The position numbers were made by a program, and so were the translations under genes. Below are positions 13,071 to 39,525 of a DNA stretch of 50,924 nt, piece after piece. The stretch covers positions 1-50,924 of the IMG/VR virus record IMGVR_UViG_3300012931_000028; one strand, given 5' to 3'. The stretch's first letter is position 1; the number at the start of each line of letters is the position of its first letter. The notes beneath the pieces are model-generated. The model ran no database searches. It was not told where the DNA came from and was given only the letters and a program-made list of their open reading frames with translations. This DNA is from a virus.

Positions 13071-13074
13071 TATA

Positions 13075-21547: not shown

Positions 21548-23698
21548 ATGGAAAATTACATAGAAAAATATATTTCTCAAAAAATAAAAATCTTTGCATG
21601 TAATGCCGACAAGACACCGGCAATAAGCGCGGGATTTTACGGCGCAACCACTGACCCCGCAACGCTCAAGGTTCAATTCAAACACCCCGAAACCATGCTC
21701 ATAGGCATGCCAACCGGAAACATGAACGGTCTGGTGGTCATCGATATTGACGTGAACAAGGAAGGGGATATCCGCACGGTCGATGAATTGCTGGAGGCGC
21801 TACAAGAATTCGGGGAAATTCCAGATACCTTTCAAACACAGACCCCAAGCGGAGGGCGGCACCTTTGGTTCACGGTCCCTTACACAAAGCTTTCATCCTC
21901 CAGGAGATTTTTCGCAAAAGATTTGCCGATTGATATTCGGGCAAATGGTGGTTATGCATGTGTTCCCGATGGGAAAAAATACATAGTTTATGATGACTAC
22001 GAGGGGATTGATATTGATAATATCAAAATCCGTTGTAAGGAATTGCCTGAATGGATTACGAATTATAAAAAATCAGCATTATCTACTCAGCAAGAAACCG
22101 GAGAATTGATACCACCAGAAGAAGTGCGCGAAATACGTTCAGCGCTCTCTTTCTTGAGTTCAGATGATCGTGATCTTTGGATTCGAATTGGAATGGCGCT
22201 GAAGAGCACCGGCGCTGCAAACGCTCGCGGCCTTTGGGATGAATGGAGCGAAAAGTCAGACAAATACAAACCGAAGGACCAGGAGCAGCGATGGAATGGC
22301 CTCAGACCCCGCGATATCGACGTTGCTACAGTTTTTTATGAAGCAAAAAAAGCGGGATGGACAACGACATATGAAAAAAGAAATGAAAAAAAACCAATAC
22401 CATCGACAACCATAATACCAAGAAATATTCAGCAAGAATATAATAAAAAAATATACGAACGAAAACCATTTCCAAAAGAATTGCTCAATCCTCCGGGACT
22501 TGTGGGCGAACTTGTAAATTATATAAATGAACGATCAATAAAAGAGCAACCGATCTATGCCCTTGCGGCAAGTCTATGCGCCGTTGGAGCGCTGGAAGGG
22601 AGAAAAATACAAACTGAAACCGGCACCAGGACTAATATTTATTGCTTGGGAGTCGGCCCGTCCGGGAGCGGAAAAGATGCCGCGAGGAAAGCGATAAAGG
22701 ACTGTTTTCATTTTGCCGGGTGTGGCGATATGGCGAGCGTTGAAGATGTTGCCAGTGACGCGGCAATATCGACAGCACTACAAAAAGAGCCATCACAAGT
22801 TTTCCTGCTAGATGAAATAGGACGTTTCCTTAAAACAACGCAGCATGCAAGCAAGTCTCCTCATTTGTATAATATAGTTTCTGTTATTTTAAAATTATAT
22901 AGCTCAAGTACGGGCGTTTATTATGGGAAAATATATGCAGAAAAGGATCGGGTAAAAATAGATAATCCGAATTTATGCATTTATGGAACAACGGTCCCTG
23001 AAGTTTTATATAAGGGATTGACGTTTGAAAATATAACAGACGGTTTTCTTTCCAGGATGCTTATATTCGAAAGTGAAGACCCTGATCCAGAAAAGAAAAG
23101 TAGAAAAAATCTTACAAAAAAACCTCCGCAATATTTGACAGAAAAAATTTCAAAGCTTCACAAAAAGGAGACTAACAATCATGCTGTTGGCAATCTTGAT
23201 CAAATAAATGTCGATCCGCAAATAGTTCCAATAAATGAAAATGCGATAGAAATAATAAAAGATTTTGACAAATATATACGAGAATATAGAAATGAATTAA
23301 GGGAGCAAAATAGAGTAGATACAATATACAACAGGACTTCGCAAATCGCGGAACAAGTGGCGCTGATTCTTGCGGGGGGAATAAATATCGATGAACCAGT
23401 GATAACCGAAAAAGAAATAATATACGGAGTGCAATTGGTAAAATATTTAAGCGACAATATGCTTTATATTGCCGAAAATTTTGTTGCCGATAATGAATAC
23501 CATCATTCCGTAAAAGAAATTTTGAAAATAATTCGTAACCATGGGAAAATATCGATGACTGAACTTACGAGAAAAACACAGCAATTACAGGGTTTTGCCA
23601 GGAACGACATGATTGAAACACTGAAGGGATCAGAGCAAATAATGGAATGTTCCGAGGGAACTGGAGTAAATAAAAAAAGAATATTTGTGGCGGTATAA
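21548..23698 (+). CDS. Primase-polymerase fused to a DUF3987-type helicase
   Basis: 716 residues. The N-terminal AEP/PrimPol domain (about 1-180) has the metal-binding LVVIDIDV motif, SGGRHLWF and a nucleotide-binding DIRANGGYACVPDG. A PriCT-like helical part follows (SSDDRDLWIRIGMALKSTG to DIDVATVFYEAKKAGW). A DUF3987/SF3-like ATPase domain comes next, with Walker A GVGPSGSGKDAARK, Walker B VFLLDEIGRF and a sensor in CIYGTTVPE. A winged-helix-like end closes it (HGKISMTELTRKTQQLQG). Probably the main replicative initiator of the phage. Confidence 0.87.
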   Translation: MENYIEKYISQKIKIFACNADKTPAISAGFYGATTDPATLKVQFKHPETMLIGMPTGNMNGLVVIDIDVNKEGDIRTVDELLEALQEFGEIPDTFQTQTPSGGRHLWFTVPYTKLSSSRRFFAKDLPIDIRANGGYACVPDGKKYIVYDDYEGIDIDNIKIRCKELPEWITNYKKSALSTQQETGELIPPEEVREIRSALSFLSSDDRDLWIRIGMALKSTGAANARGLWDEWSEKSDKYKPKDQEQRWNGLRPRDIDVATVFYEAKKAGWTTTYEKRNEKKPIPSTTIIPRNIQQEYNKKIYERKPFPKELLNPPGLVGELVNYINERSIKEQPIYALAASLCAVGALEGRKIQTETGTRTNIYCLGVGPSGSGKDAARKAIKDCFHFAGCGDMASVEDVASDAAISTALQKEPSQVFLLDEIGRFLKTTQHASKSPHLYNIVSVILKLYSSSTGVYYGKIYAEKDRVKIDNPNLCIYGTTVPEVLYKGLTFENITDGFLSRMLIFESEDPDPEKKSRKNLTKKPPQYLTEKISKLHKKETNNHAVGNLDQINVDPQIVPINENAIEIIKDFDKYIREYRNELREQNRVDTIYNRTSQIAEQVALILAGGINIDEPVITEKEIIYGVQLVKYLSDNMLYIAENFVADNEYHHSVKEILKIIRNHGKISMTELTRKTQQLQGFARNDMIETLKGSEQIMECSEGTGVNKKRIFVAV

Positions 23699-25389: not shown

Positions 25390-25719
25390 ATGAAAAAAGA
25401 ATTTCACGAATGCGATAATAAGAATTGCAAAAGAATTTCGAAGGATATTTATTCGGAAATTGGTTGGATCAACATTCCAGATGGATTTGGATTCTCAATT
25501 CATCGGGGAAGAAACGATAACGGACCAGCACACGTAAAGAGACATTTTGGGAACGGTCCTACGAGGGAACTGGACTTTTGTTCTATCAGATGCATGCTGC
25601 GATGGATGTATACGGCAAAGGAGACAGAGAATATTGAGGGTAACGGCTCTATTGAAGACGAAAATTTTTATGCTGAATTTGATAAAATCATGGGAATTGA
25701 TGGAGATTATAAAAAATGA
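25390..25719 (+). CDS. Cysteine-containing protein, unknown
   Basis: 109 residues with HECDNKNCKRIS at the N-terminus and LDFCSIRCMLRWM near residue 70, a likely zinc site in the style of FCS/MYM-like fingers. It is the last gene before the guide-like array; the stop codon abuts the dyad at 25719. Confidence 0.5.
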   Translation: MKKEFHECDNKNCKRISKDIYSEIGWINIPDGFGFSIHRGRNDNGPAHVKRHFGNGPTRELDFCSIRCMLRWMYTAKETENIEGNGSIEDENFYAEFDKIMGIDGDYKK

Positions 25720-25736
25720 CATAAGCTGTCTTTTGT
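25719..25736. promoter_or_regulatory. 18-bp dyad ACAWAA-N6-TTWTGT, copy 7, next to the array
   Basis: ACATAA, 6 nt, TTTTGT. This copy is the mirror orientation of the others and is the most symmetric (flanked by TG...CA). It lies 36 bp before the first clear array unit, so the array could be under the same control. Confidence 0.5.
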
Positions 25737-25771
25737 CAGAAGCCAGGGGGTTTGATGAAAATAGAACATAT

Positions 25772-26537
25772 GAGCGAGCCAGTTACAACAATTAAAACAT
25801 TACTGACGAGCGAGTCGATGTATTGGATTAAAACACAGATTTAGAGCGAGTCATGATATTGGATGAAAACATGTTTACGGAGCGAGCCAAAGTCGTAGAG
25901 CAAAAACAATAGTGCAAGAGCGAGTCATTGTATTGGATGAAAACAAAGTTGCGGAGCGAGCCAAGGTATTAAAGTTTCAGAGCGAGTCGATGTACTAGAT
26001 TAAAGCATAGGTGACGAGCGAGCCATAAACTATAATTAAAACATCCTCCAAGAGCGAGCCAAAGTCGTAGAGCAAAAACAATAGTGCAAGAGCGAGTCAT
26101 GGTAGAAGATCAAAACAGCAAACTGGAGAGCGGGCCAAACCAATAGAATAAAACATCTGAGATAAGCGAGCCAATTTAATAGATTAAAACAACTAAATAA
26201 AGCGAGTCAATGTTTAAGCGAAGACCAGATTTCCTGAACGAGCCGAGGGAGGTTAAGAAATTGAATATCATAGAGCGAGTCAAGGCGAGAAATAGAAAAA
26301 CAAAAATAATGAGCGAGTCATTAAACGAGGATAAGAACATCGGTTAAGAGCGAGTCAGTGTTAAAGATTAAACACATGGTATGGGAGCGGGCCATAATTG
26401 TAATTAAAAACATATTAAGAGAGCGAGCCGTGAAAGAATGTTAAAACAATCAGCAAGAGCGAGTCGTGAAAACAAATTAAAACAATTTGCGAGAGCGAGC
26501 CAATTAGAAAGATGAAATCACATCAGTAAAGCGGGTC
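25772..26537 (+). repeat. TIGR-like tandem interspaced guide array, 22 units
   Basis: Box 1 is (G/A)AGCGA(G)(C/T)C, 9 nt. Start positions include 25772, 25808, 25844, 25880, 25918, 25954, 25980, 26016, 26052, 26090, 26128, 26164, 26200, 26236, 26273, 26311, 26348, 26385, 26421, 26457, 26493 and 26529. Spacing is 36 nt in most, 37-38 in several and 26 once. About 10 nt after box 1 comes box 2, consensus ATTAAAACA. Each unit therefore reads box 1 (9), variable A (about 10), box 2 (9), variable B (about 8). A decayed unit precedes the first. No ORF spans it. Two short conserved boxes separating two short variable segments at 36 nt is the TIGR design, not CRISPR. Box 1 carries the purine-rich GA pattern that might form a kink-turn-like fold (inference). 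Units at 25880 and 26052 are identical. Confidence 0.85.
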
Positions 26538-26565
26538 TTTAAAATTAAAAAAGGGGAAACCGAAA

Positions 26566-27633
26566 ATGAACGCAGACGAAAGAAAAAAGTTAAGAGCACT
26601 TGTAAGAACGATGTACGATTATCAGGACATGAAGCTCCGAATCAAGTCTAGGCTCCGCATGAACAAGGACGATCAGATAGTCGATGAAGAAAACATGGAT
26701 GATGCTGTAATAAGTGAGCCGGATTATGCGGTAATGGAGCATGCACGAGTAACAAACCAGGATTCAGAAAAAAAGATCGCAAAAGAAATTGAAAAGATCA
26801 TAATAAAAGAAAGGCTCTATACTGAATTTTTGGTGAACGTGCGTGGATGCGGCCCACTCCTTACCGCCGCAATAATGGCCGAATTCGACATATATAAAGC
26901 GGACACCATTTCGAAAATGTGGCAATTCGCCGGGTTGAATCCAGGCATGGTGCGCGGGAAAAAGGTTATAAATATCAATAAAAATACCGACATGTCCTGC
27001 ATTATTCGGGAATACAAGAACAAGAAGGGCGAGCGGTGCGGGATAATAAAAACAGATGAAATGGTCCGAGGAGATCGAAAAACCGCCGGGTTTGTGTCTC
27101 CATTCAATAGCTGGTTAAGGACAAAACTGTGCGGTGTCCTTGCAGGGTCCATGATCAAAGCAAAGAATACCGGAGATACCGGGAGAAATTACGCTCTCGA
27201 ATTCTACGATCCCTATAAGGCAAGGCTTGAGCAGGAAGACAGCGAGGTTATGCATTGCAAAAAGATGACCTCATGGAAAGATGTGAACAAAGGACACAGA
27301 AACAATGCCGCCAAGAGATACATGATAAAAATGTTTATCAAAGACCTCTATGTCGCGTGGCGCACCATCGAAGGACTTCCGGTGCGTGTCCCATATGCCG
27401 AAGAATATCTCGGGAAAAAGCATAGTGAAAGTGAAACTGAAATCAAAGAAGCAATTAAAAATGCGAAAACATTGGTTGCACTTGTTTCTAAAACACATCT
27501 TTGCGATAGTTGCACCAAAATAATCGCAACGTGCAAGAGCAATCCGATATTCGCTTGCGATATTGACCCTACGCTTAAAGGAAAAGAATCGGATCGCATT
27601 GTAGGATGCACGGGATGGGTGGAAGTAAAATGA
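26566..27633 (+). CDS. Tas-like protein: Nop/IS110 (Transposase_20)-type RNA-binding core, no nuclease domain seen
   Basis: 355 residues, ATG after aaggggaaac, 28 bp behind the array. A charged helix (about 65-86) leads into VRGCGPLLTAAIMAEFDIYK and MWQFAGLNPGMVRGKK (91-133), the helix-hairpin-helix core shared by Transposase_20 of IS110 elements and, structurally, the Nop domain. Conserved helices follow: FNSWLRTKLCGVLAG (180-194) and GHRNNAAKRYMIKMFIKDLY (243-262). The end has Cys313, 316, 323, 331 and 348, a likely zinc module. The DEDD RuvC-like N-terminal domain of IS110 transposases is absent; no HNH or RuvC motif is visible. Family knowledge: Tas proteins bind 36-nt tigRNAs through a Nop domain, with or without HNH or RuvC. 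Inference: this is the nuclease-less kind, a guided DNA-binding protein. An orphan IS110-derived phage protein is the alternative. Confidence 0.8.
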   Translation: MNADERKKLRALVRTMYDYQDMKLRIKSRLRMNKDDQIVDEENMDDAVISEPDYAVMEHARVTNQDSEKKIAKEIEKIIIKERLYTEFLVNVRGCGPLLTAAIMAEFDIYKADTISKMWQFAGLNPGMVRGKKVININKNTDMSCIIREYKNKKGERCGIIKTDEMVRGDRKTAGFVSPFNSWLRTKLCGVLAGSMIKAKNTGDTGRNYALEFYDPYKARLEQEDSEVMHCKKMTSWKDVNKGHRNNAAKRYMIKMFIKDLYVAWRTIEGLPVRVPYAEEYLGKKHSESETEIKEAIKNAKTLVALVSKTHLCDSCTKIIATCKSNPIFACDIDPTLKGKESDRIVGCTGWVEVK

Positions 27634-27971
27634 AAAAACTAAAACTTAAACAAGCTTGTTTAAAAATATTACAAGCTTGTTTTTTCCTATTTCTACTTTT
27701 GTCATTTGGATGGATCGTTACAACAGCCGTGGATCGTGGAGAAAAAAAGGATAAAAAGCAAATTATTCAATCTATTTCTCCCGATTGTATTTCAAACGCT
27801 GAAATCGCATACAACCAGGATGCAGAAAAGATAATTTTAAGCAATATAAAAGGATACACTACAAAATGCAGCGGACTCAATTTTCTTATCTATGATTGGC
27901 CGGGGCGTCCGATGAAAGTGTGTATTCCGGTATTGAAAAACGACATGCTTGTTCCATGCTCAGGGGAATGA
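27630..27971 (+). CDS. Membrane-anchored secreted-domain protein
   Basis: 113 residues from MKKLKLKQACLKILQACFFL; ATGA overlap with the Tas-like gene, so it is translationally coupled to it. One N-terminal membrane segment (ACFFLFLLLSFGWIVTTAV), then an outside domain with Cys in CISNAEI, TKCSGL, KVCIP and VPCSGE. Unknown function; the coupling may only reflect dense packing. Confidence 0.5.
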   Translation: MKKLKLKQACLKILQACFFLFLLLSFGWIVTTAVDRGEKKDKKQIIQSISPDCISNAEIAYNQDAEKIILSNIKGYTTKCSGLNFLIYDWPGRPMKVCIPVLKNDMLVPCSGE

Positions 27972-28327: not shown

Positions 28328-29002
28328 ATGAACTACAGCGATTTCTTTATAGCAATCTACACGCACGAATGCAAATCGTATTGCGATAAACAATTTTTCG
28401 AACATTTATTCAATACGGATTTGAGAGAGGCAACGGTCAATATTGTTGATAATTCAATAGGAATGAATTATTTTAATAATTTAAACCTTCTTATCGATGG
28501 AATAAAACCGAAGGGCCATACGTTCATAAATCATATTGACGTTGACCGGAATAATCCTCACACTCAATTTTTGCGTAATGTATGCGAATCAGTAAATTAT
28601 CTCCGGGACATTTTTTTAAAAACAAAGTGCTTGTACTTTGTAATTCTTGAATCAGATGTACTTCCCCCGGAAAGATGGCTCCATTTTTTTATAGAGACAT
28701 TGAGCTTTGCTGATATAATCGGGGGGATTTATTATGCCGGATGGCATGGACAGGACATGTTTGACGCTCCAGGGATCATCAGGATGGTCACACACGCATT
28801 GAGCGGATGCACCCTATATAAGAGAGAAGTAATAGAAAAAATACCATTCAGGTGCGATTTAAGCAATCCAGCGGCTTTTCCAGACGCATTTATGAGCATG
28901 GATGCGCTCAATGCCGGGTATAAACTGGTCGATTACTCTTCTATCAATTGCCAGCACATTTTTAAGGGCGGCATGGATCGCGGGCATGCAGATATCAGAT
29001 AA
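28328..29002 (+). CDS. Glycosyltransferase-like protein, GT-A fold
   Basis: 224 residues. FVILESDVLPPERWLHFF (about 101-118) is the DxD-like donor site of a GT-A glycosyltransferase. ADIIGGIYYAGWHGQD and SGCTLYKREVIEKIPF follow the order of GT2-type enzymes. First gene of the glycan/radical SAM cluster. Confidence 0.65.
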   Translation: MNYSDFFIAIYTHECKSYCDKQFFEHLFNTDLREATVNIVDNSIGMNYFNNLNLLIDGIKPKGHTFINHIDVDRNNPHTQFLRNVCESVNYLRDIFLKTKCLYFVILESDVLPPERWLHFFIETLSFADIIGGIYYAGWHGQDMFDAPGIIRMVTHALSGCTLYKREVIEKIPFRCDLSNPAAFPDAFMSMDALNAGYKLVDYSSINCQHIFKGGMDRGHADIR

Positions 29003-29009
29003 AAACGAT

Positions 29010-29039
29010 TTGACAAAGATAGGTCCAAAATAGTATAAA
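29010..29039 (+). promoter_or_regulatory. Promoter for the glycan cluster
   Basis: TTGACA (29010-29015), 18-bp spacer, TATAAA (29034-29039), 20 bp upstream of the ATG at 29059. It sits in the only real gap of the cluster's beginning. Confidence 0.6.
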
Positions 29040-29058
29040 AAGCAAAGGAGACATAATC

Positions 29059-29706
29059 ATGCAATTCCATGCCATTATGCCGTTTTACAGAAAGCACCTT
29101 GCCCCGGTTTTAACAAAATGGTTTGAGTCGATGGACGTTATCTGGCACCCGGTATGTGATCACATAGACATTGAACCATTTATCGGGAATACAATCCCAT
29201 GGATTCAACCGATCCTGTGTGAACCGCTCAAGATACCAGGGGACCAGTGCTACAGAAAAATAAATGATTTCATCGAACACCCTTCAACAGTAATTGTGGA
29301 TGAAGATTATTATGGATTCATTCACGACGACGATATGTATGTCCCCGGATTTATTAACAAGGTGAAGCAGCAGACAGCGAAAATAATTTGCTTCAGCGCC
29401 AGCCGTGGGGAAATATGTCCGGATGACGATGCCATATACAAATGGCCGCCAATCCCGCTGATGCTCGAAAAGCTAGAAGATATTCGAGTTGCAAATATCG
29501 ATATGTGCCAAATGATCGTCAAGGGAGAAATCCTTCGTCAAACAAGATTTGGGAATAATTCTGTATGCGATGACGGTCACTATGCCGAAAACCTCCGCAA
29601 TAAATGGACAAATGACATTCTCATTCTTCCTGAATTTGGAATCAATTTCAATTATTTCCAGCCAGGCCGATATATAAAAATGTCACTGGAGCCAATATTG
29701 CCATGA
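29059..29706 (+). CDS. Glycosyltransferase-like protein, paralogue A
   Basis: 215 residues. VDEDYYGFIHDDDMYVPGF (about 76-94) is the metal/donor site; ILRQTRFGNNSVCDDGHYAE and FNYFQPGRY follow. The same motifs in the same order occur in the protein at 31166, so the two are paralogues in one operon. Probably transfers a sugar in the cytoplasm. Strong aaaggag site. Confidence 0.65.
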   Translation: MQFHAIMPFYRKHLAPVLTKWFESMDVIWHPVCDHIDIEPFIGNTIPWIQPILCEPLKIPGDQCYRKINDFIEHPSTVIVDEDYYGFIHDDDMYVPGFINKVKQQTAKIICFSASRGEICPDDDAIYKWPPIPLMLEKLEDIRVANIDMCQMIVKGEILRQTRFGNNSVCDDGHYAENLRNKWTNDILILPEFGINFNYFQPGRYIKMSLEPILP

Positions 29707-30263
29707 ACGCATTCCAAGAAATTTTTAGTCGATACGATACCGACAAAGTGCAAGCAGGATATCACAAAACATATGAAAAATGTTTTGGATCGATCAGAAA
29801 TGAAATAAAACTTCTATTCGAAATTGGCGTCAATCGCGGTGGATCGGTTCGCGCTTTTCATGAATATTTTCCAAATGCAATTGTCGTTGGAATAGACATA
29901 AACCCTGCATGCTATTTCGAACACGGGAAAATAAAAATAGAAATAGGTGACGCGACAAACATAGAATTCATAGATAAAAAAATATTGGCAAAATACGGTT
30001 GCCCGGATATCGTAATTGATGACGGCTCTCACATGAGTTGCGATATCAGGAATTCATTCAATTTGCTTTATTCTTTCACAAGAGATGCATACGTAATAGA
30101 AGACCTTGGAACACAGGACAAAAATTTCGCAAATGGGCTTTATGTCCCGGACGGGATACCGGCAACCGATCTTATTCACCACGTAGTTGAGAATGCAATT
30201 TTCAAGAAAAACTATTGCAAAGAAATATTCGTCGCTGATTCTATTTTCGTGGTAATGAAATGA
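29703..30263 (+). CDS. SAM-dependent methyltransferase (macrocin O-methyltransferase-like)
   Basis: 186 residues. YDTDKVQAGYHKTYEKCFG at the N-terminus, LLFEIGVNRGGSVRAF (motif I), VVGIDINPACYFE (motif II) and IVIDDGSHMSCDI follow the pattern of sugar O-methyltransferases such as demethylmacrocin methyltransferase. Overlaps its neighbours by 4 bp on both sides. Confidence 0.75.
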   Translation: MNAFQEIFSRYDTDKVQAGYHKTYEKCFGSIRNEIKLLFEIGVNRGGSVRAFHEYFPNAIVVGIDINPACYFEHGKIKIEIGDATNIEFIDKKILAKYGCPDIVIDDGSHMSCDIRNSFNLLYSFTRDAYVIEDLGTQDKNFANGLYVPDGIPATDLIHHVVENAIFKKNYCKEIFVADSIFVVMK

Positions 30264-31153
30264 AAAAAATAATTCCCTCCCAAATACAGATCGAAACGGT
30301 CGCCGGGTATTGCAATGTTCGTTGCACAATGTGTCCAATTGGAAAAAGCAAAAGAAAAGAAATAATGAAAAATGGAGTATTCGAAAGGATACTACAGCGC
30401 TTGCTTCCAATCAGAGAAAACATAAATATCCTCACGCTCTTGGGACTTGGGGAAACCTTAATGGATACAAAAATTATAGATAAAATAAGAATAGCAAAAC
30501 GCTATAAATTTAGCGAAGTGGGTATATTTTCAAATGGGATGAATCTAACAGAGCGAACGGCTCTTCGATTACTTTATGCTGGTCTTGATTCTATTGTATT
30601 AAGTATTGATGGATTTAAAAAAGAAACCGAAGAATCAATAAGAATAGGATCAAATTTTGAAAGAATAGTTGAAAACATTGATTCATTTATTGAAATCAGA
30701 AAAGCACTTAATGCTAAAACAAAAATAATAATTCGTTTCACAAAACAGGAAAAAAATAAAGATGAATGGCTTAATTTTCTTGAATTCTGGTCAGGGAAAT
30801 TAAGCAAAGATCACGGGGATGCAATTTTCAGTTATAATATTCATAACGCAGGAGATGAAACAATTAAAAATGAATCATCCAGGAATATTCCAACCGAAAA
30901 TTTAAAATGTCCCGAAGTGTTCAACAGAATGATTATTTTTTCAGACGGATCAATCGGCCTATGTTGCGGGGACCAGTTCGGACATTATGATATCGGGAAC
31001 ATCCTTGAAAGTGATCCTATTGAATTATACAATCATAAATTATTTCAGCATTATCGGGAAGAAATGATCCAGGGTAATATTTCGAATTTAGAATTATGCA
31101 AATCATGCACCGTGGCTCATTCCATTGCAACAAGCACACATATATTTTTATAA
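30260..31153 (+). CDS. Radical SAM/SPASM enzyme A
   Basis: 297 residues. AGYCNVRCTMC (Cys18, 22, 25) binds the radical SAM [4Fe-4S] cluster, and LLGLGETLMD is the GE-type motif for SAM. The C-terminus has KCPEVF, LCCGDQFGHY and LCKSCTVAH, a SPASM-like auxiliary cluster region. SPASM enzymes modify peptides or oxidise sugar alcohols; in this glycan cluster a sugar-directed reaction is plausible but unproven. Confidence 0.8.
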   Translation: MKKIIPSQIQIETVAGYCNVRCTMCPIGKSKRKEIMKNGVFERILQRLLPIRENINILTLLGLGETLMDTKIIDKIRIAKRYKFSEVGIFSNGMNLTERTALRLLYAGLDSIVLSIDGFKKETEESIRIGSNFERIVENIDSFIEIRKALNAKTKIIIRFTKQEKNKDEWLNFLEFWSGKLSKDHGDAIFSYNIHNAGDETIKNESSRNIPTENLKCPEVFNRMIIFSDGSIGLCCGDQFGHYDIGNILESDPIELYNHKLFQHYREEMIQGNISNLELCKSCTVAHSIATSTHIFL

Positions 31154-31165
31154 ATAGAGGATAAA

Positions 31166-31810
31166 ATGAATATTCACATTGTATGCCCATTCAAAAGAAT
31201 AGAATTACTTCCAACGCTTATAAAATATCTTGAACCGATGAACATCATTTTTCATCCGGTCATTACTCCAGAAGAAATTTTTGAAGTAAATAGAGACTGG
31301 ATACGCCCGCTGGTGGTTGAAATCAATGCGTATGTAATTGCCTACGAAAAAATAAATAAATTCATAGAGCAATACCCCATAATAGATGAAGATTATTACG
31401 GATTTATGGGCGATGATGACATGTACGAACCGGGATTTTTCGATGTGATCCGCGAACAAACTGCCGGGATACTGATGTATTCGCTATATCGCGGTGACAG
31501 CATTCCAGAATGTGATCCGGAGAAACATCCGCCCATTCCAATCCACATGTGCTGCCTTGATAATGTTCGCGTGTGCAATATCGGACTCCTGCAATATATT
31601 CTCAAGGGGTCAATTCTCCGGCAGACACGATTCGATACAAATCATCGGTGGTCCGATGGCGGATACGCAGAAACGCTTGCGGCACGATTTCCAGGTGAAA
31701 TAAAATTTCTACCAAACCTTTATGGGTTTGGAAATTTCTTTCAGCCAGGGAGATATACACAAAAAAGTTTTTTCATAAAATCCACATGGGAGCTTCCTGA
31801 AATAGTATGA
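31166..31810 (+). CDS. Glycosyltransferase-like protein, paralogue B
   Basis: 214 residues. IDEDYYGFMGDDDMYEPGFF, ILRQTRFDTNHRWSDGGYAE and GNFFQPGRY align with the protein at 29059 in the same order. Donor and acceptor unknown. Duplication followed by divergence in the same cluster suggests two related linkages. Confidence 0.65.
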   Translation: MNIHIVCPFKRIELLPTLIKYLEPMNIIFHPVITPEEIFEVNRDWIRPLVVEINAYVIAYEKINKFIEQYPIIDEDYYGFMGDDDMYEPGFFDVIREQTAGILMYSLYRGDSIPECDPEKHPPIPIHMCCLDNVRVCNIGLLQYILKGSILRQTRFDTNHRWSDGGYAETLAARFPGEIKFLPNLYGFGNFFQPGRYTQKSFFIKSTWELPEIV

Positions 31811-32766
31811 AAAGAATACAGCTTGAAAACAGGAATGATTTAAAATCAGAAATTCCATTAAACACGCCTTACGTTATTTTCGTTGATCCTTCAAGCTATT
31901 GCAATTTTGCATGTCGCTTTTGCATGAACAGCAAAATCCAGGACCGGGAGATAATGAGGCCCGCGCTGTTTTACAGGATCATTGATTCTCTCCAGGATTT
32001 TGAAAAACCGATAAAGGTGTTGCGTCTTTATGGTTTTGGCGAACCGCTGATGCACAAGCATTTTGAATGGCTTGTCGCGCATGCGAAACGGTCGAAAAAA
32101 ATTCTTTCAGTCGATACGACGACAAACGCAAGTCTCCTTACTCCGGCGAGAAGCGAAAGGATCATTACCAGCGGCATAGATCGAATAAATATTTCAATTG
32201 AAGGAATGAACGATACTCACTACAAAGAATTTGCGCAAACAAAAATACCAATATTTCAAAAGATAATCGATAATGTGGCGCACCTTTATTTAATATCGAG
32301 AAACAAAACAATCATATTTGTAAAAATAAATGGCGATTATCTTTTGGACGAGGAAAAAGAACAGTTCACACATATTTTCAGCCAGATAAGCGATGGGATA
32401 GATATTGAGCACACCATGAATTGCTGGTATGACATCCAGGTTGAAAACGTAAACAAGGAAGTTGGAATATACGGCCAGGAGCTTCAAGACGTAAAAGTCT
32501 GTCCCTATATATTTTATAGCATCATGATTCATGCTGACGGGATAGTGAGCAAGTGCTTTCTTGACTGGAACAAAAAGATGATTGTCGGAAACGCGAATAA
32601 AGAAAGCATTGAAAAAATATGGAACGGTCCCGCGATGTACGAAGCGCGAGTAAGGATGCTAGAGGGTGATCCCCCGGAAATATGCAAGCAATGCCAGCAA
32701 TTGAAAGCCGGGATGCCCGTCGATCTCGATCACGATAAGGATGAATTATTAAGGAGATTTAAATAA
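31807..32766 (+). CDS. Radical SAM/SPASM enzyme B
   Basis: 319 residues. SSYCNFACRFC (Cys32, 36, 39) is the cluster motif, LYGFGEPLMHKHF the GEP motif. The C-terminus (VCPYIFYSIMIHADG, SKCFLDWNK, ICKQCQQLK) is a SPASM/Twitch-like auxiliary cluster site. Distinct from enzyme A in sequence, though the architecture is the same. Overlaps both neighbours. Confidence 0.82.
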   Translation: MKRIQLENRNDLKSEIPLNTPYVIFVDPSSYCNFACRFCMNSKIQDREIMRPALFYRIIDSLQDFEKPIKVLRLYGFGEPLMHKHFEWLVAHAKRSKKILSVDTTTNASLLTPARSERIITSGIDRINISIEGMNDTHYKEFAQTKIPIFQKIIDNVAHLYLISRNKTIIFVKINGDYLLDEEKEQFTHIFSQISDGIDIEHTMNCWYDIQVENVNKEVGIYGQELQDVKVCPYIFYSIMIHADGIVSKCFLDWNKKMIVGNANKESIEKIWNGPAMYEARVRMLEGDPPEICKQCQQLKAGMPVDLDHDKDELLRRFK

Positions 32767-33338
32767 TGAAACATTTTTACGAATCAATCGGGGAAAACTG
32801 GTTTTCATACAAGGTTCTTTATTCGGCAATGGTGAAAAGAATTCCTCCGGGGATGGGTGCAACCTTCGTTGAGGTAGGATGCTGGAGAGGGCGCAGCGCC
32901 GCGTTTCTTGGCGTTGAAATGATCAATTCGGGAAAGCATATAAAACTTTATTGCGTTGATTCTTGGAAATATATTCCATCGACAGAGCAGCCCGTTTCAA
33001 GCCAGGAAGATTTTGACAAGGTAAAAGAGGAATTCTATAAAAACATGGAGCCGTTCGGGGATGCTGTTGAAATTCTTCCAATGTCATCGAAAGATGCGGT
33101 TGAAAAATTTGAAGACGAAAGCATTGATTTTGCCTTCATAGACGCGGCCCATGATTATTACAATGTATACATGGATATTAAACTGTGGTATCCGAAAGTA
33201 AAAAAAGGCGGAATAATCGCAGGGCATGATTATTTTACTTCAGTTCATCCCGATGTTAAAACTGCCGTGGATGATTATTTCAGGGGAAAAAGTTTATTGA
33301 TGGTCCCAAAAGAAAATTTTTGGCTGAATTATAAATGA
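32766..33338 (+). CDS. Class I methyltransferase, Methyltransf_24/TylF-like
   Basis: 190 residues. TFVEVGCWRGRSAAFLGVEM (motif I), LYCVDSWKYI (motif II), SIDFAFIDAAHDYYNVYMDI (motif IV) and VKKGGIIAGHDYF are typical of the metal-dependent sugar/small-molecule O-methyltransferases of this family. Starts on the last base of the preceding stop codon. Confidence 0.8.
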   Translation: MKHFYESIGENWFSYKVLYSAMVKRIPPGMGATFVEVGCWRGRSAAFLGVEMINSGKHIKLYCVDSWKYIPSTEQPVSSQEDFDKVKEEFYKNMEPFGDAVEILPMSSKDAVEKFEDESIDFAFIDAAHDYYNVYMDIKLWYPKVKKGGIIAGHDYFTSVHPDVKTAVDDYFRGKSLLMVPKENFWLNYK

Positions 33339-34588
33339 AAAAAAACATATTACACGTTTCAACGCATTATGGCGGGGGAGTCGGGTCCGTGGTCCGGGCC
33401 ATTGTCAAAAACGATAAAGAGAATAATCATACTATTTCGTATTTAAACAATATTGATAAAAATAAAAATAATTATTCTCAATTATTTAATAATAATCTTA
33501 TAGAAGAAAACGACATTGTTCTTTGCCATGTATGGAATCATCCGGCGATGTTTGAATTTTTAACCGGGAATTCCATTCCTGCTTGCCGACTCATAGGGTG
33601 GTCACACATGAGCGGGTTGCATGCTCCCTATGTGCTGTTCGATTATCTTATGGATTTTTTTGATGAATTTTATTATACATCTCCGGTAAGTAATTTATCA
33701 GGAACAATAAAACCGTATATATGGTCATGCTGTGATATTGAAAAATTTTCTGAAATAAAAAAAGAAAAGCAGGAAAGATTTACAATAGGATATGTGGGGA
33801 CTCTCGATTATTGCAAAATTCATCCAGAGTTTCTTGGAATTTGCAAAAAAATAATAAAAGATATTCCTGATGTAAAATTTTTAATTGTCGGTGACGGATG
33901 CGATGCCGAAAACATGAAACAAAATATTGCACATTTCAAACTTGATTATCACTTTGAATTTACCGGACCAGTATCGGACACCAGGCCTTATCTTGGAAAA
34001 ATGGATTTATTCATGTATCCATTGCAGCCAAAACATTTTGGGACATGCGAACAGGTGATCGGAGAAGCTATGGCGGCCAGTGTTCCCGTGGTGGCCCTCA
34101 ATAATCCTGCCGAAAGTATAATTATTATCGATGGCATAAATGGATTTATTGCGAATAAAGTGGAGGAAATTCCAATTATCGCCAGCATCATTCATGATAA
34201 TATTGATAAAGAATCTTTATTAAGAGAAATGATCGATACTGCAAAAAAATATGCATTATTAAGATATTCCCCTTATAGAATGGTTGAACATTGGAATGAT
34301 ATTTTTAACGGAATAATAAAAAAAGAAAAATCGGAAAGAAAAAAATGGGCAAAACCAATTCACATATTTGCCGATTCTCTCGGGCCTGTTCATGGTAAAA
34401 TATTTGAAGATTATGTAATGGATAATCACGCAATGGCTCCAAGGAGATATGAATATTACAATCCAAAAATTCATAAAATTTTTTCAGAAAATCCACAATG
34501 GTTGTCAAAATCAAAGGGAAGCGTCCGGCAATACCTTGAATACTTTCCAGATGATCCCTACCTCGGAGAATGGGAGAAATTAATATGA
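33335..34588 (+). CDS. GT4-type glycosyltransferase
   Basis: 417 residues, GT-B fold. The N-terminus ILHVSTHYGGGVGSVVRAI contains the Gly-rich acceptor loop. FTIGYVGTLDYCKIHPEFL, FLIVGDGCD and FEFTGPVSDTRPYLGKMDLF, followed by CEQVIGEAMAASVPVVALNN, give the EX7E donor motif of family 4. About 60 C-terminal residues extend beyond the fold. Retaining hexosyl transfer expected; substrates unknown. Confidence 0.85.
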   Translation: MKKNILHVSTHYGGGVGSVVRAIVKNDKENNHTISYLNNIDKNKNNYSQLFNNNLIEENDIVLCHVWNHPAMFEFLTGNSIPACRLIGWSHMSGLHAPYVLFDYLMDFFDEFYYTSPVSNLSGTIKPYIWSCCDIEKFSEIKKEKQERFTIGYVGTLDYCKIHPEFLGICKKIIKDIPDVKFLIVGDGCDAENMKQNIAHFKLDYHFEFTGPVSDTRPYLGKMDLFMYPLQPKHFGTCEQVIGEAMAASVPVVALNNPAESIIIIDGINGFIANKVEEIPIIASIIHDNIDKESLLREMIDTAKKYALLRYSPYRMVEHWNDIFNGIIKKEKSERKKWAKPIHIFADSLGPVHGKIFEDYVMDNHAMAPRRYEYYNPKIHKIFSENPQWLSKSKGSVRQYLEYFPDDPYLGEWEKLI

Positions 34589-35535
34589 TAATTTGTCCTG
34601 CATGTAATAATCCAAGAGGACACATTCTCCAGGAAATAAAACTGGAGACAATAAAGGAATCAAATCTTTATAAAGATGTAAAAATAGCACGATGCAGCTA
34701 TTGCCTTCATTATTTTAATGTCTTATCAAAAAAAGATATAACTGGGTTAAAAGAATATTATTTTCAAGAGTACACAGAAAATAAATTTAATCCTACAAGA
34801 ATAAATTATAATTTTTTTGACCATGAGCCAGAAAATAATGATCTTGTAATTGGACCGAATAAAGAAATTGCATATACTTTAAATATTTTATATCTTAATA
34901 AAAAAAACTTAAAGGCAGTCAAAAAAATTAATTTTATAGCATTAAATCAGGTTTTGGAGCATTGTTGGAGCCTGAATAATGTAATTTTTAATTTAAAAAA
35001 ACTTTTAAGCCCAAATGGGCTTCTTTATGTCAGTGTCCCCGATTTTGATGGGTACAAGTATGATCTTTTCCCCTATTTCCTAACAATCAGGGAGCACGTA
35101 CAGCATTTTACCGAAAATTCCCTAATCTCGGCGCTGTGTGGACATGGATTTGAATTACTAGAATTCAGAAGGAGCGCGTTACCGTTATTGAATAGAAAGC
35201 TTGATATGATGAATATCGAATTTTTATTTAAATACCATCCAGGGGAAGCTTTTCCGGTGCCACTTAAGTTTTCACAGGAGGTATATTGCTATGGGGCCGG
35301 GCGCGAATTGACTTACTATCTTACGCAGAACAAACTTTTTTATCTCTATGGAATTTTTGACGACAATAAAAATTTAATTGGAAAAACAATAAAAAATACT
35401 TTTATACTTGATCCGAAAATTATATCGTCACTACATAAATCTTCAACAATCGTTGTGACTTCAATATACAGCAAAGAAAAAATAATTGAACGGATAAAAT
35501 CTTTTAATTTCAAAGGAAAAATAAAAACGATATGA
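34585..35535 (+). CDS. Methyltransf_23-like protein with zinc-ribbon start
   Basis: 316 residues from MIICPACNNPRGHIL; gggagaaat precedes this ATG, better than the ATG at 34570. Two Cys pairs (CPAC and CSYC) form an N-terminal zinc module as in sugar C-methyltransferases. NQVLEHCWSLNN, LLSPNGLLYVSVPDFDGY and TENSLISALCGHGFELLEF are the methyltransferase C-half. A canonical GxGxG SAM loop is not seen, so activity is uncertain. A Rossmann-like C-terminal part (YCYGAGRELTYYL, YGIFDDNKN) follows, again as in C-methyltransferases. Confidence 0.65.
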   Translation: MIICPACNNPRGHILQEIKLETIKESNLYKDVKIARCSYCLHYFNVLSKKDITGLKEYYFQEYTENKFNPTRINYNFFDHEPENNDLVIGPNKEIAYTLNILYLNKKNLKAVKKINFIALNQVLEHCWSLNNVIFNLKKLLSPNGLLYVSVPDFDGYKYDLFPYFLTIREHVQHFTENSLISALCGHGFELLEFRRSALPLLNRKLDMMNIEFLFKYHPGEAFPVPLKFSQEVYCYGAGRELTYYLTQNKLFYLYGIFDDNKNLIGKTIKNTFILDPKIISSLHKSSTIVVTSIYSKEKIIERIKSFNFKGKIKTI

Positions 35536-36539
35536 TAACAATATCAATTTGCGATACTGCAATTCAATCGGCATGCGCTTATTATCGAGGACTTGGAGTA
35601 TTTTCCAAGCTCCGCCTGATCGCGCCGGGGATTCACGCGGAAAACATGGTGTCCGTAAGCTGGGACAAGCTCGCGAATACCGATATACTGTTTGTTTTGC
35701 GCCCTGTAGAAAATTCATCAATTAAGGTGATGGAGTGGGCAAAGGATTTTAATATTCCAGTATGGATTGATTTTGACGATTGCCTTCATGAAATAATGCC
35801 GGACAATCCAGCCTATGATTATTTTCATGATGATCATCGTCTCGAAAATATGATAAAATCACTTTCTTTTGCTGATATGATAACAGTATCAACAAAGTTT
35901 CTTTCTGAATACTATCAAAAATACATGGATAAAAAAATAATAGTAATTCCAAATGCTCATAACGATTATCACTATCCATTTAAGAAGATAGAAAATACCG
36001 TTGATTTCATAAGCTGGAGAGGATCGACAACACATCGGCAGGATTTATTGTCATGTGCCAAGGGGATGTTCGCCATTGCCGAAAAATATCCACAATGGGC
36101 GTGGTCTTTTGTCGGAAACGATATCTGGTTTATTACTGATAAAATAAAAAATCATTTTAACCAGAAGGAAGTTGATATAATCAATTATTACAAATATATC
36201 AGTGATTTGCATTCAGCAATTCATATTGTCCCATTGCGTGATAATTTATTCAACAGGTCCAAAAGCAATATAAGCTGGATCGAAGGAACATACTCGGGAT
36301 CGGCCGTGATCGCTCCTTCTTTTGCTGAATTCGAATATCCAGGAATATTAAGATATACACAAAGTGAAGAGAGCTTTTCCTATTGTCTCGAAAAGCTTAT
36401 AAACAGCAAGGCGGAGCGTCAAAAGCGATATCTGGAGAGCTACGATTATATTAAAAAATTTCTTTTATTGTCATCCGTAAATAATGAACGAATAAACATT
36501 GTGGAAAAGATGCTTGACAGAAAGATCGTGAGAGCGTAA
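35532..36539 (+). CDS. GT4-like glycosyltransferase
   Basis: 335 residues. VWIDFDDCLHEIMPDNPAYD, ADMITVSTKFLSEYYQKY and IIVIPNAHN, then ISWRGSTTHRQDLL and a later KSNISWIEGTYSGSAVIAPS, follow the family of GT-B proteins that track virion or host-surface glycan loci. Last gene of the cluster, followed by a strong terminator. Confidence 0.7.
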   Translation: MITISICDTAIQSACAYYRGLGVFSKLRLIAPGIHAENMVSVSWDKLANTDILFVLRPVENSSIKVMEWAKDFNIPVWIDFDDCLHEIMPDNPAYDYFHDDHRLENMIKSLSFADMITVSTKFLSEYYQKYMDKKIIVIPNAHNDYHYPFKKIENTVDFISWRGSTTHRQDLLSCAKGMFAIAEKYPQWAWSFVGNDIWFITDKIKNHFNQKEVDIINYYKYISDLHSAIHIVPLRDNLFNRSKSNISWIEGTYSGSAVIAPSFAEFEYPGILRYTQSEESFSYCLEKLINSKAERQKRYLESYDYIKKFLLLSSVNNERINIVEKMLDRKIVRA

Positions 36540-36607
36540 GGTGAATTTTATCAATGGCAAAAACCATATGAAAGATCATCGAGACCGATCATCCAGGGCC
36601 GGGCAGC

Positions 36608-36635
36608 AAAAACCCCTCAGAAATGAGGGGTTTTT
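36608..36635 (+). terminator. Strong rho-independent terminator of the glycan cluster
   Basis: Perfect 12-bp stem AAAAACCCCTCA / TGAGGGGTTTTT with a GAAA tetraloop and flanking A and T runs, so it can work on both strands. Confidence 0.93.
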
Positions 36636-36809
36636 CATTCATAAAGAAACTAAAAACTCATCATCAATTATCATTGGTTCAAGAGGGATTTTTGAATCAA
36701 TGGGGTTAAAAAACAACGTAGTTTTTAGTTTATACCCGAAATACGTATACAACCACTTCTTTATTGTTCAAAAAACACCCCCTAAAATTATTTAACTAAA
36801 AACTCCTAT

Positions 36810-36892
36810 TTGGTCCTTTAATTATACGCTTTTGCTGTTTCCCCCCGGAGAATACGAGGGAAAACAGGAAACCCCTATAATTAAAGGACCAA
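36810..36892. repeat. Long hairpin/cruciform
   Basis: Perfect 17-bp arms: TTGGTCCTTTAATTATA (36810-36826) and its complement (36876-36892). The G+C-rich centre contains an inner stem CTGTTT-CCC (36835-36843) with GGG-AAACAG (36858-36867). No T run follows, so it is not an ordinary terminator. Confidence 0.7.
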
Positions 36893-37001
36893 TTAGTAGT
36901 TTTTAATTTATTATAATATTATATATATTTATTAAACATATATAATATCAATGTATATATATTTCCTTAATAAACTAAAAACTCGTTTGTTTTTTGACTC
37001 C

Positions 37002-37029
37002 ATTGATTCAAAAAAATTTTTGAATCAAT
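37002..37029. repeat. Perfect palindrome with ATTGATTCAA arms
   Basis: 13-nt arms ATTGATTCAAAAA / TTTTTGAATCAAT around AA. A looser copy lies at 36672-36702 (CATTGGTTCAA ... TTTGAATCAATG), which shares the right arm exactly. Probably binding sites of a dimeric protein. Confidence 0.55.
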
Positions 37030-37282
37030 GATAATTATAGAATAGTTTGAATTTATAAATAAGTAGTTTTTAGTTTATATTTTATTAGTTTTTAATTTCA
37101 TCAATTATATAAATAAAATAATTATAATTGTCAGTCAATAAATTGATTAATTTTTATTTTGTTGTTGACAGAATATGTCTCTAAGGTTCTTATAAAATAA
37201 AATAATTGCAAATGGTCGTGTGAATTCATTTTAGTTATTTATTTATTCAATTATAAAATTCAAATTTTGTGAGGAACAAGTT

Positions 37283-37846
37283 TTGGTGATCAATGAAATA
37301 ATCGATGGCCTGAATAAGAAAGGATATCCTACCTTTTTAAGAAATTACTTCTATATTCAAAATCATCGCCGGTCGCTGTTCCAGGTGACAGCAAACCTCG
37401 AAATCAAAGAAGAGAATACAGGTTTTGCCGGGGAAGAAAATTCAGAAATAATAGAAACTGAAATTGTTGAATTTATTCGTAAAGTTGTTTTTAAATATAG
37501 CAATATGATCAACAACTCAATGCTATTCAATTTAAAAACAAACAACATGGAATATTTTTTAAAAATTACAATTTTAAAAATTCCCTCCAAAATTATTCTT
37601 AAAATAAAACCAGAGGAAACTGACTTTGCCTCCAGGTTCGCGGAGAAGGTGGAAGAATGTATTCGTGATGCTGGGGAGAGTGGAATATCCTTGACCGGGA
37701 TTGTTTCAAAAACTCAATTTATGTCACGCGAAGTCAGGAAAAACATACTTCAAGAAAAACTTGATCTCGGAATTATTTCGGTTCAATTCGATTGTACGCA
37801 TAAAAAAAGAAAAGCGATCTATACGTGGGTTGGCGAGAATGAATAA
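37283..37846 (+). CDS. Protein with C-terminal winged-helix-like part
   Basis: 187 residues from TTG (37283) or GTG (37286); gaggaa lies 6-9 nt upstream. The first 120 residues are not recognised. The end (CIRDAGESGISLTGIVSKTQ, MSREVRKNILQEKLDLGIIS) has the order of a winged helix used in phage regulators and initiators. It follows the repeat hub directly, so it may bind it (inference). Overlaps RusA by 8 bp. Confidence 0.5.
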   Translation: MVINEIIDGLNKKGYPTFLRNYFYIQNHRRSLFQVTANLEIKEENTGFAGEENSEIIETEIVEFIRKVVFKYSNMINNSMLFNLKTNNMEYFLKITILKIPSKIILKIKPEETDFASRFAEKVEECIRDAGESGISLTGIVSKTQFMSREVRKNILQEKLDLGIISVQFDCTHKKRKAIYTWVGENE

Positions 37847-38252
37847 TATTATCAATTTAACCATTCCAGGAAATCCTGTTGCGAAAAAAAGAAGTCGCCA
37901 GGGATCGAATAGACGGTGGTATAATCCGCAAGAAGATATAATGCAAATAGTCAAAAGAATGATAAAGGAACAGCTTCCAGAATCATTCAAATTGATGGAT
38001 TCAAAAATTCCAATTGCATGCAATTTTATTTTTTTATTTTCTTTTCCCGCCACACTTTCGAGAAAATCAATTGAGAAATATAATACAGAAGTTGTTCCAT
38101 GTTTAAACAAAAAGGACATTGATAATCTCGAAAAATTTTACATGGATGTGATGAATGGGATTGTGTGGTATGATGATAATCAAGTGTATTCAGTCCATGC
38201 GGTAAAATATTATTCTTCGAATCCGCGCACAGAAATAGAAGTATCGTGGTGA
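37839..38252 (+). CDS. rusA: RusA-family Holliday junction resolvase
   Basis: 137 residues from MNNIINLTIPGNPVAKKRSR; the longer frame from 37701 runs through the previous gene and is rejected. IPGNPVAKKR and NKKDIDNLEKFYMDVMNGIVWYDDNQV carry the conserved Asp residues (DIDNL, D of YMDV, and DD) that bind Mg and cut four-way junctions. Located between regulator and packaging genes, consistent with debranching before packaging. Confidence 0.85.
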   Translation: MNNIINLTIPGNPVAKKRSRQGSNRRWYNPQEDIMQIVKRMIKEQLPESFKLMDSKIPIACNFIFLFSFPATLSRKSIEKYNTEVVPCLNKKDIDNLEKFYMDVMNGIVWYDDNQVYSVHAVKYYSSNPRTEIEVSW

Positions 38253-38280
38253 AAATTAGAAAAAGTTAGCGTTTTTGTGT

Positions 38281-38309
38281 TTGACAACAACTAAAAACTA
38301 GGAAACGAT
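38281..38309 (+). promoter_or_regulatory. Promoter-like site containing an ACTAAAAACT operator
   Basis: TTGACA (38281-38286), 17-bp spacer and AACGAT (38304-38309), a weak -10. The spacer is almost filled by AACTAAAAACTA (38289-38300), the motif of the 36.6-37.1 kb hub. A protein bound there would block RNA polymerase. Confidence 0.45.
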
Positions 38310-38317
38310 AAACCATT

Positions 38318-38533
38318 ATGAGTGGAAAACAACATGCGCTAAAAAAACTTCACGCCGAAAATCGATTGAAGGATAAAATAATTGGATCGCTTTTAAAGGA
38401 AATAAATGCATACAAGGTGCCTATTCCCGAATATGTTTTGAAAACAATGCAATTACTTTACAAAAAGAAATTGATTAAGAATAGCAGGGTTGGAATTATT
38501 TTAGAAGAAAATATACAGGAGAAGGCTGAATGA
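38318..38533 (+). CDS. Small protein, unknown
   Basis: 71 residues, helical and basic (KQHALKKLHAENRLKDKIIG). Weak ribosome site (aggaaacg, rather far upstream). ATGA overlap with the dehydratase. Unknown. Confidence 0.45.
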   Translation: MSGKQHALKKLHAENRLKDKIIGSLLKEINAYKVPIPEYVLKTMQLLYKKKLIKNSRVGIILEENIQEKAE

Positions 38534-39525
38534 AAAAGAATATTTTGATCACAGGTAGCGCTGGCTTTATTGGCTCTCATTTGGTAGAGCATATTCTTTT
38601 GAATACAGATTGGAATATAACCGGGATTGATTCGTTTCGTCATCGCGGGGATAGTGTTCGCGTTGACCAGGATCATAACAGGTATAAAATTTTTACTCAT
38701 GATTTGACAACTCCTATTTCGGAGCGCCTTGCGCGTCGAATAGGAAGAGTCGATTATATCGTGAATATGGCAAGCGAATCACACGTTGACAGGTCCATTA
38801 CCGATCCGGTATCGTTTTGTGAAAATAATATCAAGCTTGCTCTTAATATGCTTGAATTTGCGCGAGTAGCAAAGCCAACGCATTTTATTCAAATATCGAC
38901 TGATGAAGTGTACGGCCCTGCCCTCGATCACGTCAATCATTGCGAGTGGTCTACAATTATTCCTTCGAATCCCTACAGCGCTTCAAAAGCCTCACAGGAA
39001 AGCCTTGCGGTTGCATGGTGGAGGACATACGGCGTCCCGGTCGTTATTACGAATACCATGAATAATTTTGGTGAAAAGCAGGATAAGGAGAAATTTCTCC
39101 CGATGCTTATTTCAAAAATATTCCATAATGAAGTTGCAATTATCCATGGTTCAGAAGATAACATAGGCAGCAGATATTATTTACATGCACGAAATCACGC
39201 CGATGCTGTTTTATTTATTCTGGAAAATACAACTCCAGTTCAATATTATGATTCTCAGGAAAAGATTGTTGTTCCTGATCGTTATAACGTGGTTGGAGAT
39301 ATCGAGCTTAACAATCTCGAATTCGCTCAAATGGTATCAGAAATCATGGGAATAAATCTGAATTACAAGCTTGAAGATTTTCACCATACGCGCCCAGGAC
39401 ATGATCGCCGGTACGCTCTTGACGGATCAAAATTAAAAAACATGGGATGGGTTGCACCAGTTTCTTTCCGTGAATCACTGGAGCGCACGGTCAAATGGAC
39501 ACTCGATCATCCTTGGTGGTTATAG
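38530..39525 (+). CDS. NAD-dependent sugar-nucleotide 4,6-dehydratase/epimerase
   Basis: 331 residues, extended SDR. ILITGSAGFIGSHLVEHIL is the NAD-binding GxxGxxG. YIVNMASESHVDRSI and FIQISTDEVYG follow, then PYSASKASQESL with the catalytic Tyr-x-x-x-Lys, and HARNHADAVLFILE. The AAESHVDRSI-like and STDEVYG motifs resemble dTDP-glucose 4,6-dehydratase (RmlB). It probably supplies a deoxysugar donor for the transferases at 28-36 kb, although it is transcribed from a separate unit just before terminase. Confidence 0.85.
   Translation: MKKNILITGSAGFIGSHLVEHILLNTDWNITGIDSFRHRGDSVRVDQDHNRYKIFTHDLTTPISERLARRIGRVDYIVNMASESHVDRSITDPVSFCENNIKLALNMLEFARVAKPTHFIQISTDEVYGPALDHVNHCEWSTIIPSNPYSASKASQESLAVAWWRTYGVPVVITNTMNNFGEKQDKEKFLPMLISKIFHNEVAIIHGSEDNIGSRYYLHARNHADAVLFILENTTPVQYYDSQEKIVVPDRYNVVGDIELNNLEFAQMVSEIMGINLNYKLEDFHHTRPGHDRRYALDGSKLKNMGWVAPVSFRESLERTVKWTLDHPWWL

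What the first reader, a model, noticed from the sequence alone, without database searches (positions are those of the whole stretch)
25739..27633. Phage TIGR-Tas-like locus: 22-unit, 36-nt two-box guide array beside an IS110/Nop-type protein
Seen: a noncoding array where GAGCGAGYC recurs 22 times at 36 nt (26-38), with a second box ATTAAAACA in the middle and two short variable segments per unit. A gene 28 bp downstream encodes the VRGCGPLLTAAIMAEF...QFAGLNPG core of Transposase_20 without the DEDD transposase domain. Known: TIGR-Tas systems, described in phages and parasitic bacteria, join arrays processed to 36-nt tigRNAs with Nop-domain Tas proteins related to IS110 and box C/D RNPs. Inference: this is a nuclease-less member that binds, rather than cuts, guided DNA, perhaps to silence rival phages, host genes or its own genome. 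The Cys-cluster tail could be a DNA-binding or partner module.
Basis: partly seen in the sequence, partly recalled or inferred. Interest (0 to 1): 0.97.

Follow-up and report, generated by a model that had tools for sequence, protein, structure and literature searches.

The report
Phage TIGR-TasA guide-RNA locus
This phage fragment carries a complete TIGR-TasA locus, that is, an array of 22 paired short RNA guides beside a nuclease-free guide-binding protein; it is a real but additional member of a system described in 2025, and its natural target is still unknown.

Summary
An array at 25741-26537 holds 22 units. Its plan is 10-nt edge repeat, about 8-nt spacer A, 10-nt loop repeat, about 8-nt spacer B, and the modal period is 36 nt. 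A 355-aa gene starts 28 bp further on.

The protein passes NCBI's curated TIGR-Tas cut-off over the whole model (119 vs 100 bits). By sequence and by fold its best solved matches are TasH and TasR, ahead of IS110 recombinases. It has no nuclease domain, so it is TasA, a type already published (PMC12045711).

About 100 relatives were found. Of 85 non-redundant relative loci, 77 carry period-36 arrays, against 11 of 127 control loci. Edge and loop repeats conserve box C/D base pairs by compensatory change. The window's loop (GATTAAAACA) differs from the loop GAGTAAACCA of close relatives at exactly the two paired positions (G-C to T-A).

New details: a 65-70-residue Cys-containing C-terminal tail with no relative found; unusually irregular units; and evidence that arrays grow by local duplication with spacer drift.

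No spacer pair matched its own phage, related phages or other TasA loci above chance, so the proposed silencing of rivals, hosts or itself has no support yet.

The parts
25741..25745 (+). 5'-truncated edge repeat (AGCCA) that opens the array, followed by unit 0 (spacer GGGGGTTT, loop GATGAAAATA, spacer GAACATAT)
   Evidence: tiling of the array; matches the 5' truncated edge rule of PMC12045711
25741..26529 (+). TIGR dual-repeat array, 22 units: edge GAGCGRGYCR, spacer A (~8 nt), loop RATKAAAACA, spacer B (~8 nt); 13 of the 21 units with a full edge are exactly 36 nt, the others 26, 37 or 38
26529..26537 (+). terminal degenerate edge repeat (AAGCGGGTC), 28 bp before the start codon
25808..26117 (+). 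internal block duplication: units 2-5 and 7-10 repeat at 172 bp with 80% identity; units 4 and 9 are identical
   Evidence: (family D4)
26566..27633 (+). tasA: 355-aa solo Nop/IS110-type RNA-binding protein without nuclease domain
   Evidence: NCBIfam NF052498 TIGR_Tas_endo 119.2 bits vs cut-off 100; PDB TasH/TasR by sequence and fold; phrog_4285 2e-29; alignment A1
27424..27630 (+). C-terminal extension (about residues 287-355) with a CX2C-X5-C-X7-C-X16-C pattern; absent from the relatives aligned and without detectable relatives
   Evidence: alignment; no relatives; pLDDT mostly below 60
27630..27971 (+). next gene, small membrane-type ORF whose ATG overlaps the tasA stop (ATGA), as in translationally coupled genes; supports the annotated end of tasA
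   Evidence: sequence; ORF; no family match

Best explanation
The locus is a TIGR-TasA system carried as an accessory module by a tailed phage. The array and tasA lie head to tail and are probably co-transcribed. The pre-tigRNA is cut inside each edge repeat, giving tigRNAs of about 36 nt: 5'-AGYCR, spacer A, loop, spacer B, GAGCG-3'. A TasA dimer binds one tigRNA through its edge and loop boxes. Spacer A pairs with one strand and spacer B with the other strand of a roughly 16-bp DNA site. The protein holds and bends the DNA without cutting it, which would block or remodel a process there (transcription, replication or recombination). Shown here: the anatomy, the family membership, the conserved and compensated box C/D pairs, and the lack of a nuclease domain. 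Inferred from TasR/TasH/TasA experiments in PMC12045711: processing, dual-strand targeting, bending. Unknown: the target and the benefit to the phage. The array most likely grew by duplication of neighbouring units followed by independent drift of spacers.
For: Curated family cut-off passed over the whole model. Best solved relatives are TasH and TasR by sequence and by fold (TasH E 1e-11, TasR 3e-8, IS621/ISCro4 from 2e-4). Period-36 arrays at 77 of 85 relatives vs 11 of 127 control loci. Compensatory pairs: edge 3-8 and 4-7 and loop 3-8 pair in 98, 100 and 98% of 44 distinct arrays, reached by 5, 0 and 2 of 5000 column shuffles. The window loop has the G-C to T-A double change, also in L008 and L034. 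Adjacent units share near-identical spacers 20-fold above null.
Against: No RNA or binding data. Eight of 21 full units are not 36 nt, against 6% of intervals in relatives, and some loops lack a box pair, so part of the array may be decaying. No terminator was found after the array. No targets were found.
Confidence: 0.93

Rival explanations
1. The locus is a TIGR-TasA system that is partly degenerate: TasA is intact but much of the array no longer makes good guides, so only a subset of units works.
For: 8 of 21 full units deviate from 36 nt, one unit lacks its loop (26 nt), unit 14 has broken edge and loop pairs; relatives are 94% exactly 36 nt.
Against: The edge 4-7 pair is intact in all 21 full edges and the 3-8 pair in 20. 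Several insertions fall in the middle of the loop, which made no clear sequence-specific contacts in the TasR structure. The protein has no stop or frameshift.
Confidence: 0.3
2. The natural targets are in the phage itself: tigRNAs mark sites in its own genome to regulate transcription, replication or integration.
For: Phage-encoded, no nuclease (so self-binding would not be lethal), a tyrosine-type integrase at 13033-13959.
Against: No site in the rest of the window matches any spacer pair with 0 or 1 mismatch in either arrangement, and 2-mismatch counts equal re-paired controls. The same holds for nine related phage contigs against their own arrays. The window may be an incomplete genome.
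Confidence: 0.08
3. An IS110-type transposase remnant beside an unrelated tandem repeat (for example iterons of an origin).
For: PHROGs and public records call the family 'transposase'; weak Transposase_20 match.
Against: IS110 model 21 bits vs cut-off 140 while TIGR-Tas passes; no DEDD domain; array and gene travel together in 77 of 85 loci with unrelated neighbours; repeats have box C/D covariation expected of RNA, not of iterons.
Confidence: 0.01

Closest known systems
TIGR-TasA with dual-repeat array (Faure et al. 2025, PMC12045711)
   Same: Solo Nop-type protein, edge/spacer/loop/spacer array of 36-nt units, phage location, box C/D pairs that covary between edge and loop, 5'-truncated first edge
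   Different: 22 units rather than the usual 5-15; 8-nt spacers, where the paper gives 9 nt as usual (FpTIGR has 18 variable nt per unit); irregular unit lengths; C-terminal Cys-containing tail; no ParB-like partner gene
TIGR-TasH (Salicola phage CGphi29) and TIGR-TasR (9mty)
   Same: Best solved relatives in sequence and fold of the RNA-binding core
   Different: They carry N-terminal HNH or RuvC nuclease domains; none here
IS110-family bridge-RNA recombinases (IS621, ISCro4)
   Same: Related RNA-binding core (E from 2e-4)
   Different: No DEDD domain, array instead of a bridge RNA, IS110 family cut-off not met
CRISPR arrays
   Same: Regular repeats with variable spacers beside an RNA-binding protein gene
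   Different: Two alternating 10-nt repeats, 8-nt spacers, no Cas effector or adaptation genes beside the array

Membership tests
TIGR-Tas (TasA type) | Tas protein with Nop/IS110-type RNA-binding core | tested here: met
   NCBIfam NF052498 above cut-off, full model; PDB profile hits TasH 9e-24, TasR 1.5e-21; fold hits
TIGR-Tas (TasA type) | Adjacent array of alternating edge and loop repeats of 8-12 nt with two short spacers per unit | tested here: met
   same in relatives
TIGR-Tas (TasA type) | Box C/D motifs in edge and loop that base-pair and covary | tested here: met
   across 44 distinct arrays; in the window (edge 3-8 pairs in 20/21, 4-7 in 21/21; loop 3-8 pairs in 15/17 ten-nt loops)
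TIGR-Tas (TasA type) | No nuclease domain (solo Nop) | tested here: met
TIGR-Tas (TasA type) | Array begins with a 5'-truncated edge and ends with a 3'-truncated edge and terminator | tested here: inconclusive
   Truncated first edge present; last edge is degenerate rather than cleanly truncated and no terminator is predicted
TIGR-Tas (TasA type) | Transcript processed to 36-nt tigRNAs bound by Tas | not testable with these tools
   needs small-RNA sequencing
TIGR-Tas (TasA type) | Guided dual-strand DNA binding | not testable with these tools
   native targets were sought and not found, which does not test binding
TIGR TasA-ParB operon | ParB-like gene next to tasA | tested here: not met
   ParB-like of L002 found in 39 of 104 TasA loci, none in the window
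TIGR stem-loop arrays | Palindromic stem-loops in place of edge repeats | tested here: not met
   no inverted repeats in 25500-27000
IS110 transposase | DEDD transposase domain plus Transposase_20 | tested here: not met
   Transposase_20 13 bits vs 21 cut-off, no DEDD match; NF033542 21 bits vs 140

The most novel reading that the evidence does not exclude
The C-terminal Cys-containing tail is a fused effector or recruiting module (for example a zinc-binding DNA- or protein-binding domain), making this a Tas architecture beyond TasA, TasR and TasH: a guide-directed recruiter rather than a plain DNA-binding clamp.
Probability: 0.12. Interest if true: 0.65.

Novelty: new member of a known kind. 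Interest (0 to 1): 0.42.

Why it matters
What TasA does for its virus and how TIGR arrays grow are the two open questions named by the discoverers. This locus and its relatives bear on the second: neighbouring units share near-identical spacers far more often than chance, which suggests duplication and drift rather than capture. The box C/D compensations, including the G-C to T-A swap in this window, give independent comparative evidence that the TasR-derived RNA contacts also hold in TasA arrays. The unexplained tail is a testable candidate for a new Tas partner or effector module.

Tried and rejected
Self-targets: 19 spacer pairs of the window against the rest of the window, both arrangements, gaps -1 to 3: equal to re-paired controls. 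836 pairs from all arrays against 773 kb of TasA loci: 2 exact hits vs 2.1 expected. Window pairs against 565 kb of relatives of this phage, found through terminase and a Cas4-type exonuclease: none exact. Window and nine relatives against full contigs, self and cross: at the null. Two whole-IMG/VR scans for targets of units 4/9 and 17: 32 and 52 hits, about what I estimate for chance, no shared contig, and no enrichment for other units' targets in those contigs. Complementarity between spacers A and B in a unit: none overall, so the A/B complementarity seen in unit 16 is probably chance. Tail relatives in PHROGs, Pfam, GenBank phages, IMG/VR and all loci held: none. Rfam: no family. PADLOC (2023 edition): no defence family. 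Host-genome target search was not done: the host is unknown, and the GTDB relatives sit in metagenome-assembled genomes.

Full report
What is there. The window is an IMG/VR virus record of 50,924 bases, linear. It carries a PBSX-type terminase, portal, primase, helicases and a tyrosine-type integrase. Between 25741 and 26537 lies a noncoding array. Each unit is a 10-nt edge repeat (GAGCGRGYCR), an 8-nt spacer, a 10-nt loop repeat (RATKAAAACA) and a second 8-nt spacer. Twenty-one full edges and a 5'-truncated one define 22 units that tile the array exactly. All six frames are stop-rich. Random shuffles gave at most two copies of the edge core against 16 observed. The gene at 26566-27633 starts 28 bp after the last, degenerate repeat; its stop overlaps the next gene's start as ATGA.

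What the protein is. NCBIfam's TIGR-Tas model covers residues 9-266 with all 215 model positions at 119 bits, cut-off 100; the IS110 transposase model reaches 21 of 140. PDB sequence search gives TasR 9mty (3e-9) and TasH (1e-8) with the single sequence, and 1.5e-21 and 9e-24 with a 12-member profile. The AlphaFold model (pLDDT 79.7, core mostly 85-95) matches TasH (1e-11), TasR (3e-8) and then IS110-family IS621 and ISCro4 (from 2e-4). No nuclease domain is found. It is therefore TasA in the nomenclature of PMC12045711, where solo-Nop TasA is described as the most common effector.

Linkage of array and protein. Scans found 99 IMG/VR relatives (80 kept) and 10 in GTDB genomes. Of 85 non-redundant loci, 77 have a period-36 repeat cluster, against 11 of 127 control phage loci, with no such contrast at periods 30, 33, 39 or 42. 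Neighbouring genes of the window are not conserved at other TasA loci, and eight contigs related to this phage by terminase, exonuclease or other genes lack TasA, though most are fragments. The module therefore appears to be accessory and to move between phages. A ParB-like gene sits near TasA at 39 of 104 loci but not in the window.

Box C/D pairs. Across 44 distinct edge-loop combinations, edge positions 3-8 (G-C, A-T, G-T), edge positions 4-7 (C-G, T-A, T-G) and loop positions 3-8 (G-C, T-A) pair in 98, 100 and 98% of cases. Shuffled columns reach this in 5, 0 and 2 of 5000 trials; this control does not remove relatedness. In the relatives L025 and L026 a loop GAGTAAACCA occurs; the window's GATTAAAACA differs at positions 3 and 8 only, a base-pair-preserving double change that also appears in L008 and L034. 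This agrees with the TasR structure, where box C and box D bases pair. It supports tigRNAs of the form AGYCR, spacer A, loop, spacer B, GAGCG (5+8+10+8+5 = 36 nt). The cut point is inferred from the paper, not shown here.

How arrays grow. Among 843 units in 67 arrays, spacers A of adjacent units differ by at most one base in 1.85% of cases, against 0.08% for letter-shuffled and 0.07% for between-array controls. Spacers B show 1.5%, and both decay with distance. The window shows the same as a 172-bp block duplication (units 2-5 and 7-10, 80% identical, units 4 and 9 identical). Closest relatives share no spacer pair with the window. I read this as local duplication followed by drift. Selection for related targets could also contribute.

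Targets. The tandem rule (A pairs with one strand, B with the other) gives the site A + reverse complement of B. I derived this order from the 8-nt 3' overhang the paper reports, because its two statements of the cut side disagree; the opposite order was tested as well. No search rose above its control: self, 773 kb of TasA loci, 565 kb of relatives of this phage, ten contigs with their own arrays plus cross-comparison, and two IMG/VR-wide scans. Self-regulation and attack on close relatives are therefore unsupported. Host and unrelated elements remain open, and mismatched sites cannot be excluded.

What differs from published TasA loci. First, about residues 287-355 form a Cys-containing tail that none of the aligned relatives has, with no relative found and no confident fold. 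Second, 8 of the 21 full units depart from 36 nt, against 6% of intervals in relatives, mostly through 1-2 nt additions in loop or spacer. Third, the array is longer than the usual 5-15 units. These are variations within a known kind.

Verdict. The functional suggestions remain untested, and the target searches do not favour them. New member of a known kind; moderate interest because of the array-growth signal, the compensated loop and the unexplained tail.

Noticed in passing
L160:4680-5010 (Microcystis phage Mvi-JY20, PP438412, record 22097-22427): An isolated cyanophage carries a TasA-like gene (annotated hypothetical) followed by a clear 36-nt dual-repeat TIGR array of about 9 units (TGCGAGCCA / ACGAAACCCA) and a terminator-like end: a possibly culturable TIGR-TasA model.
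   Followed up: partly
L159:2640-3693 (Mycobacterium phage Tripl3t, gp73): A distant TasA-like protein next to a Cas4 exonuclease and near the immunity repressor, with about 300 nt of stem-loop-rich noncoding DNA upstream that resembles a stem-loop TIGR array; the same protein is in several other M. smegmatis phages.
   Followed up: partly
window 28328-39525: About 11 kb of glycosyltransferase, radical SAM/SPASM, methyltransferase and sugar epimerase genes in a phage; homologues of many of them sit in the related contig behind L107/L109.
   Followed up: no
window 10903-12918: Helicase ORF with intein-splicing and HNH matches near its N-terminus (residues 36-146), so probably the C-terminal part of an intein joined to the helicase extein.
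   Followed up: no
window 4-422: Tandem repeat of 126 bp (3.3 copies, 87% identity) at the contig start, within an open frame (100-516), probably a repetitive structural protein cut by the contig end.
   Followed up: no
L020 (Candidatus Moraniibacteriota MAG contig): A TasA relative in a CPR genome with strong repetition at period 37 rather than 36; not analysed further.
   Followed up: no
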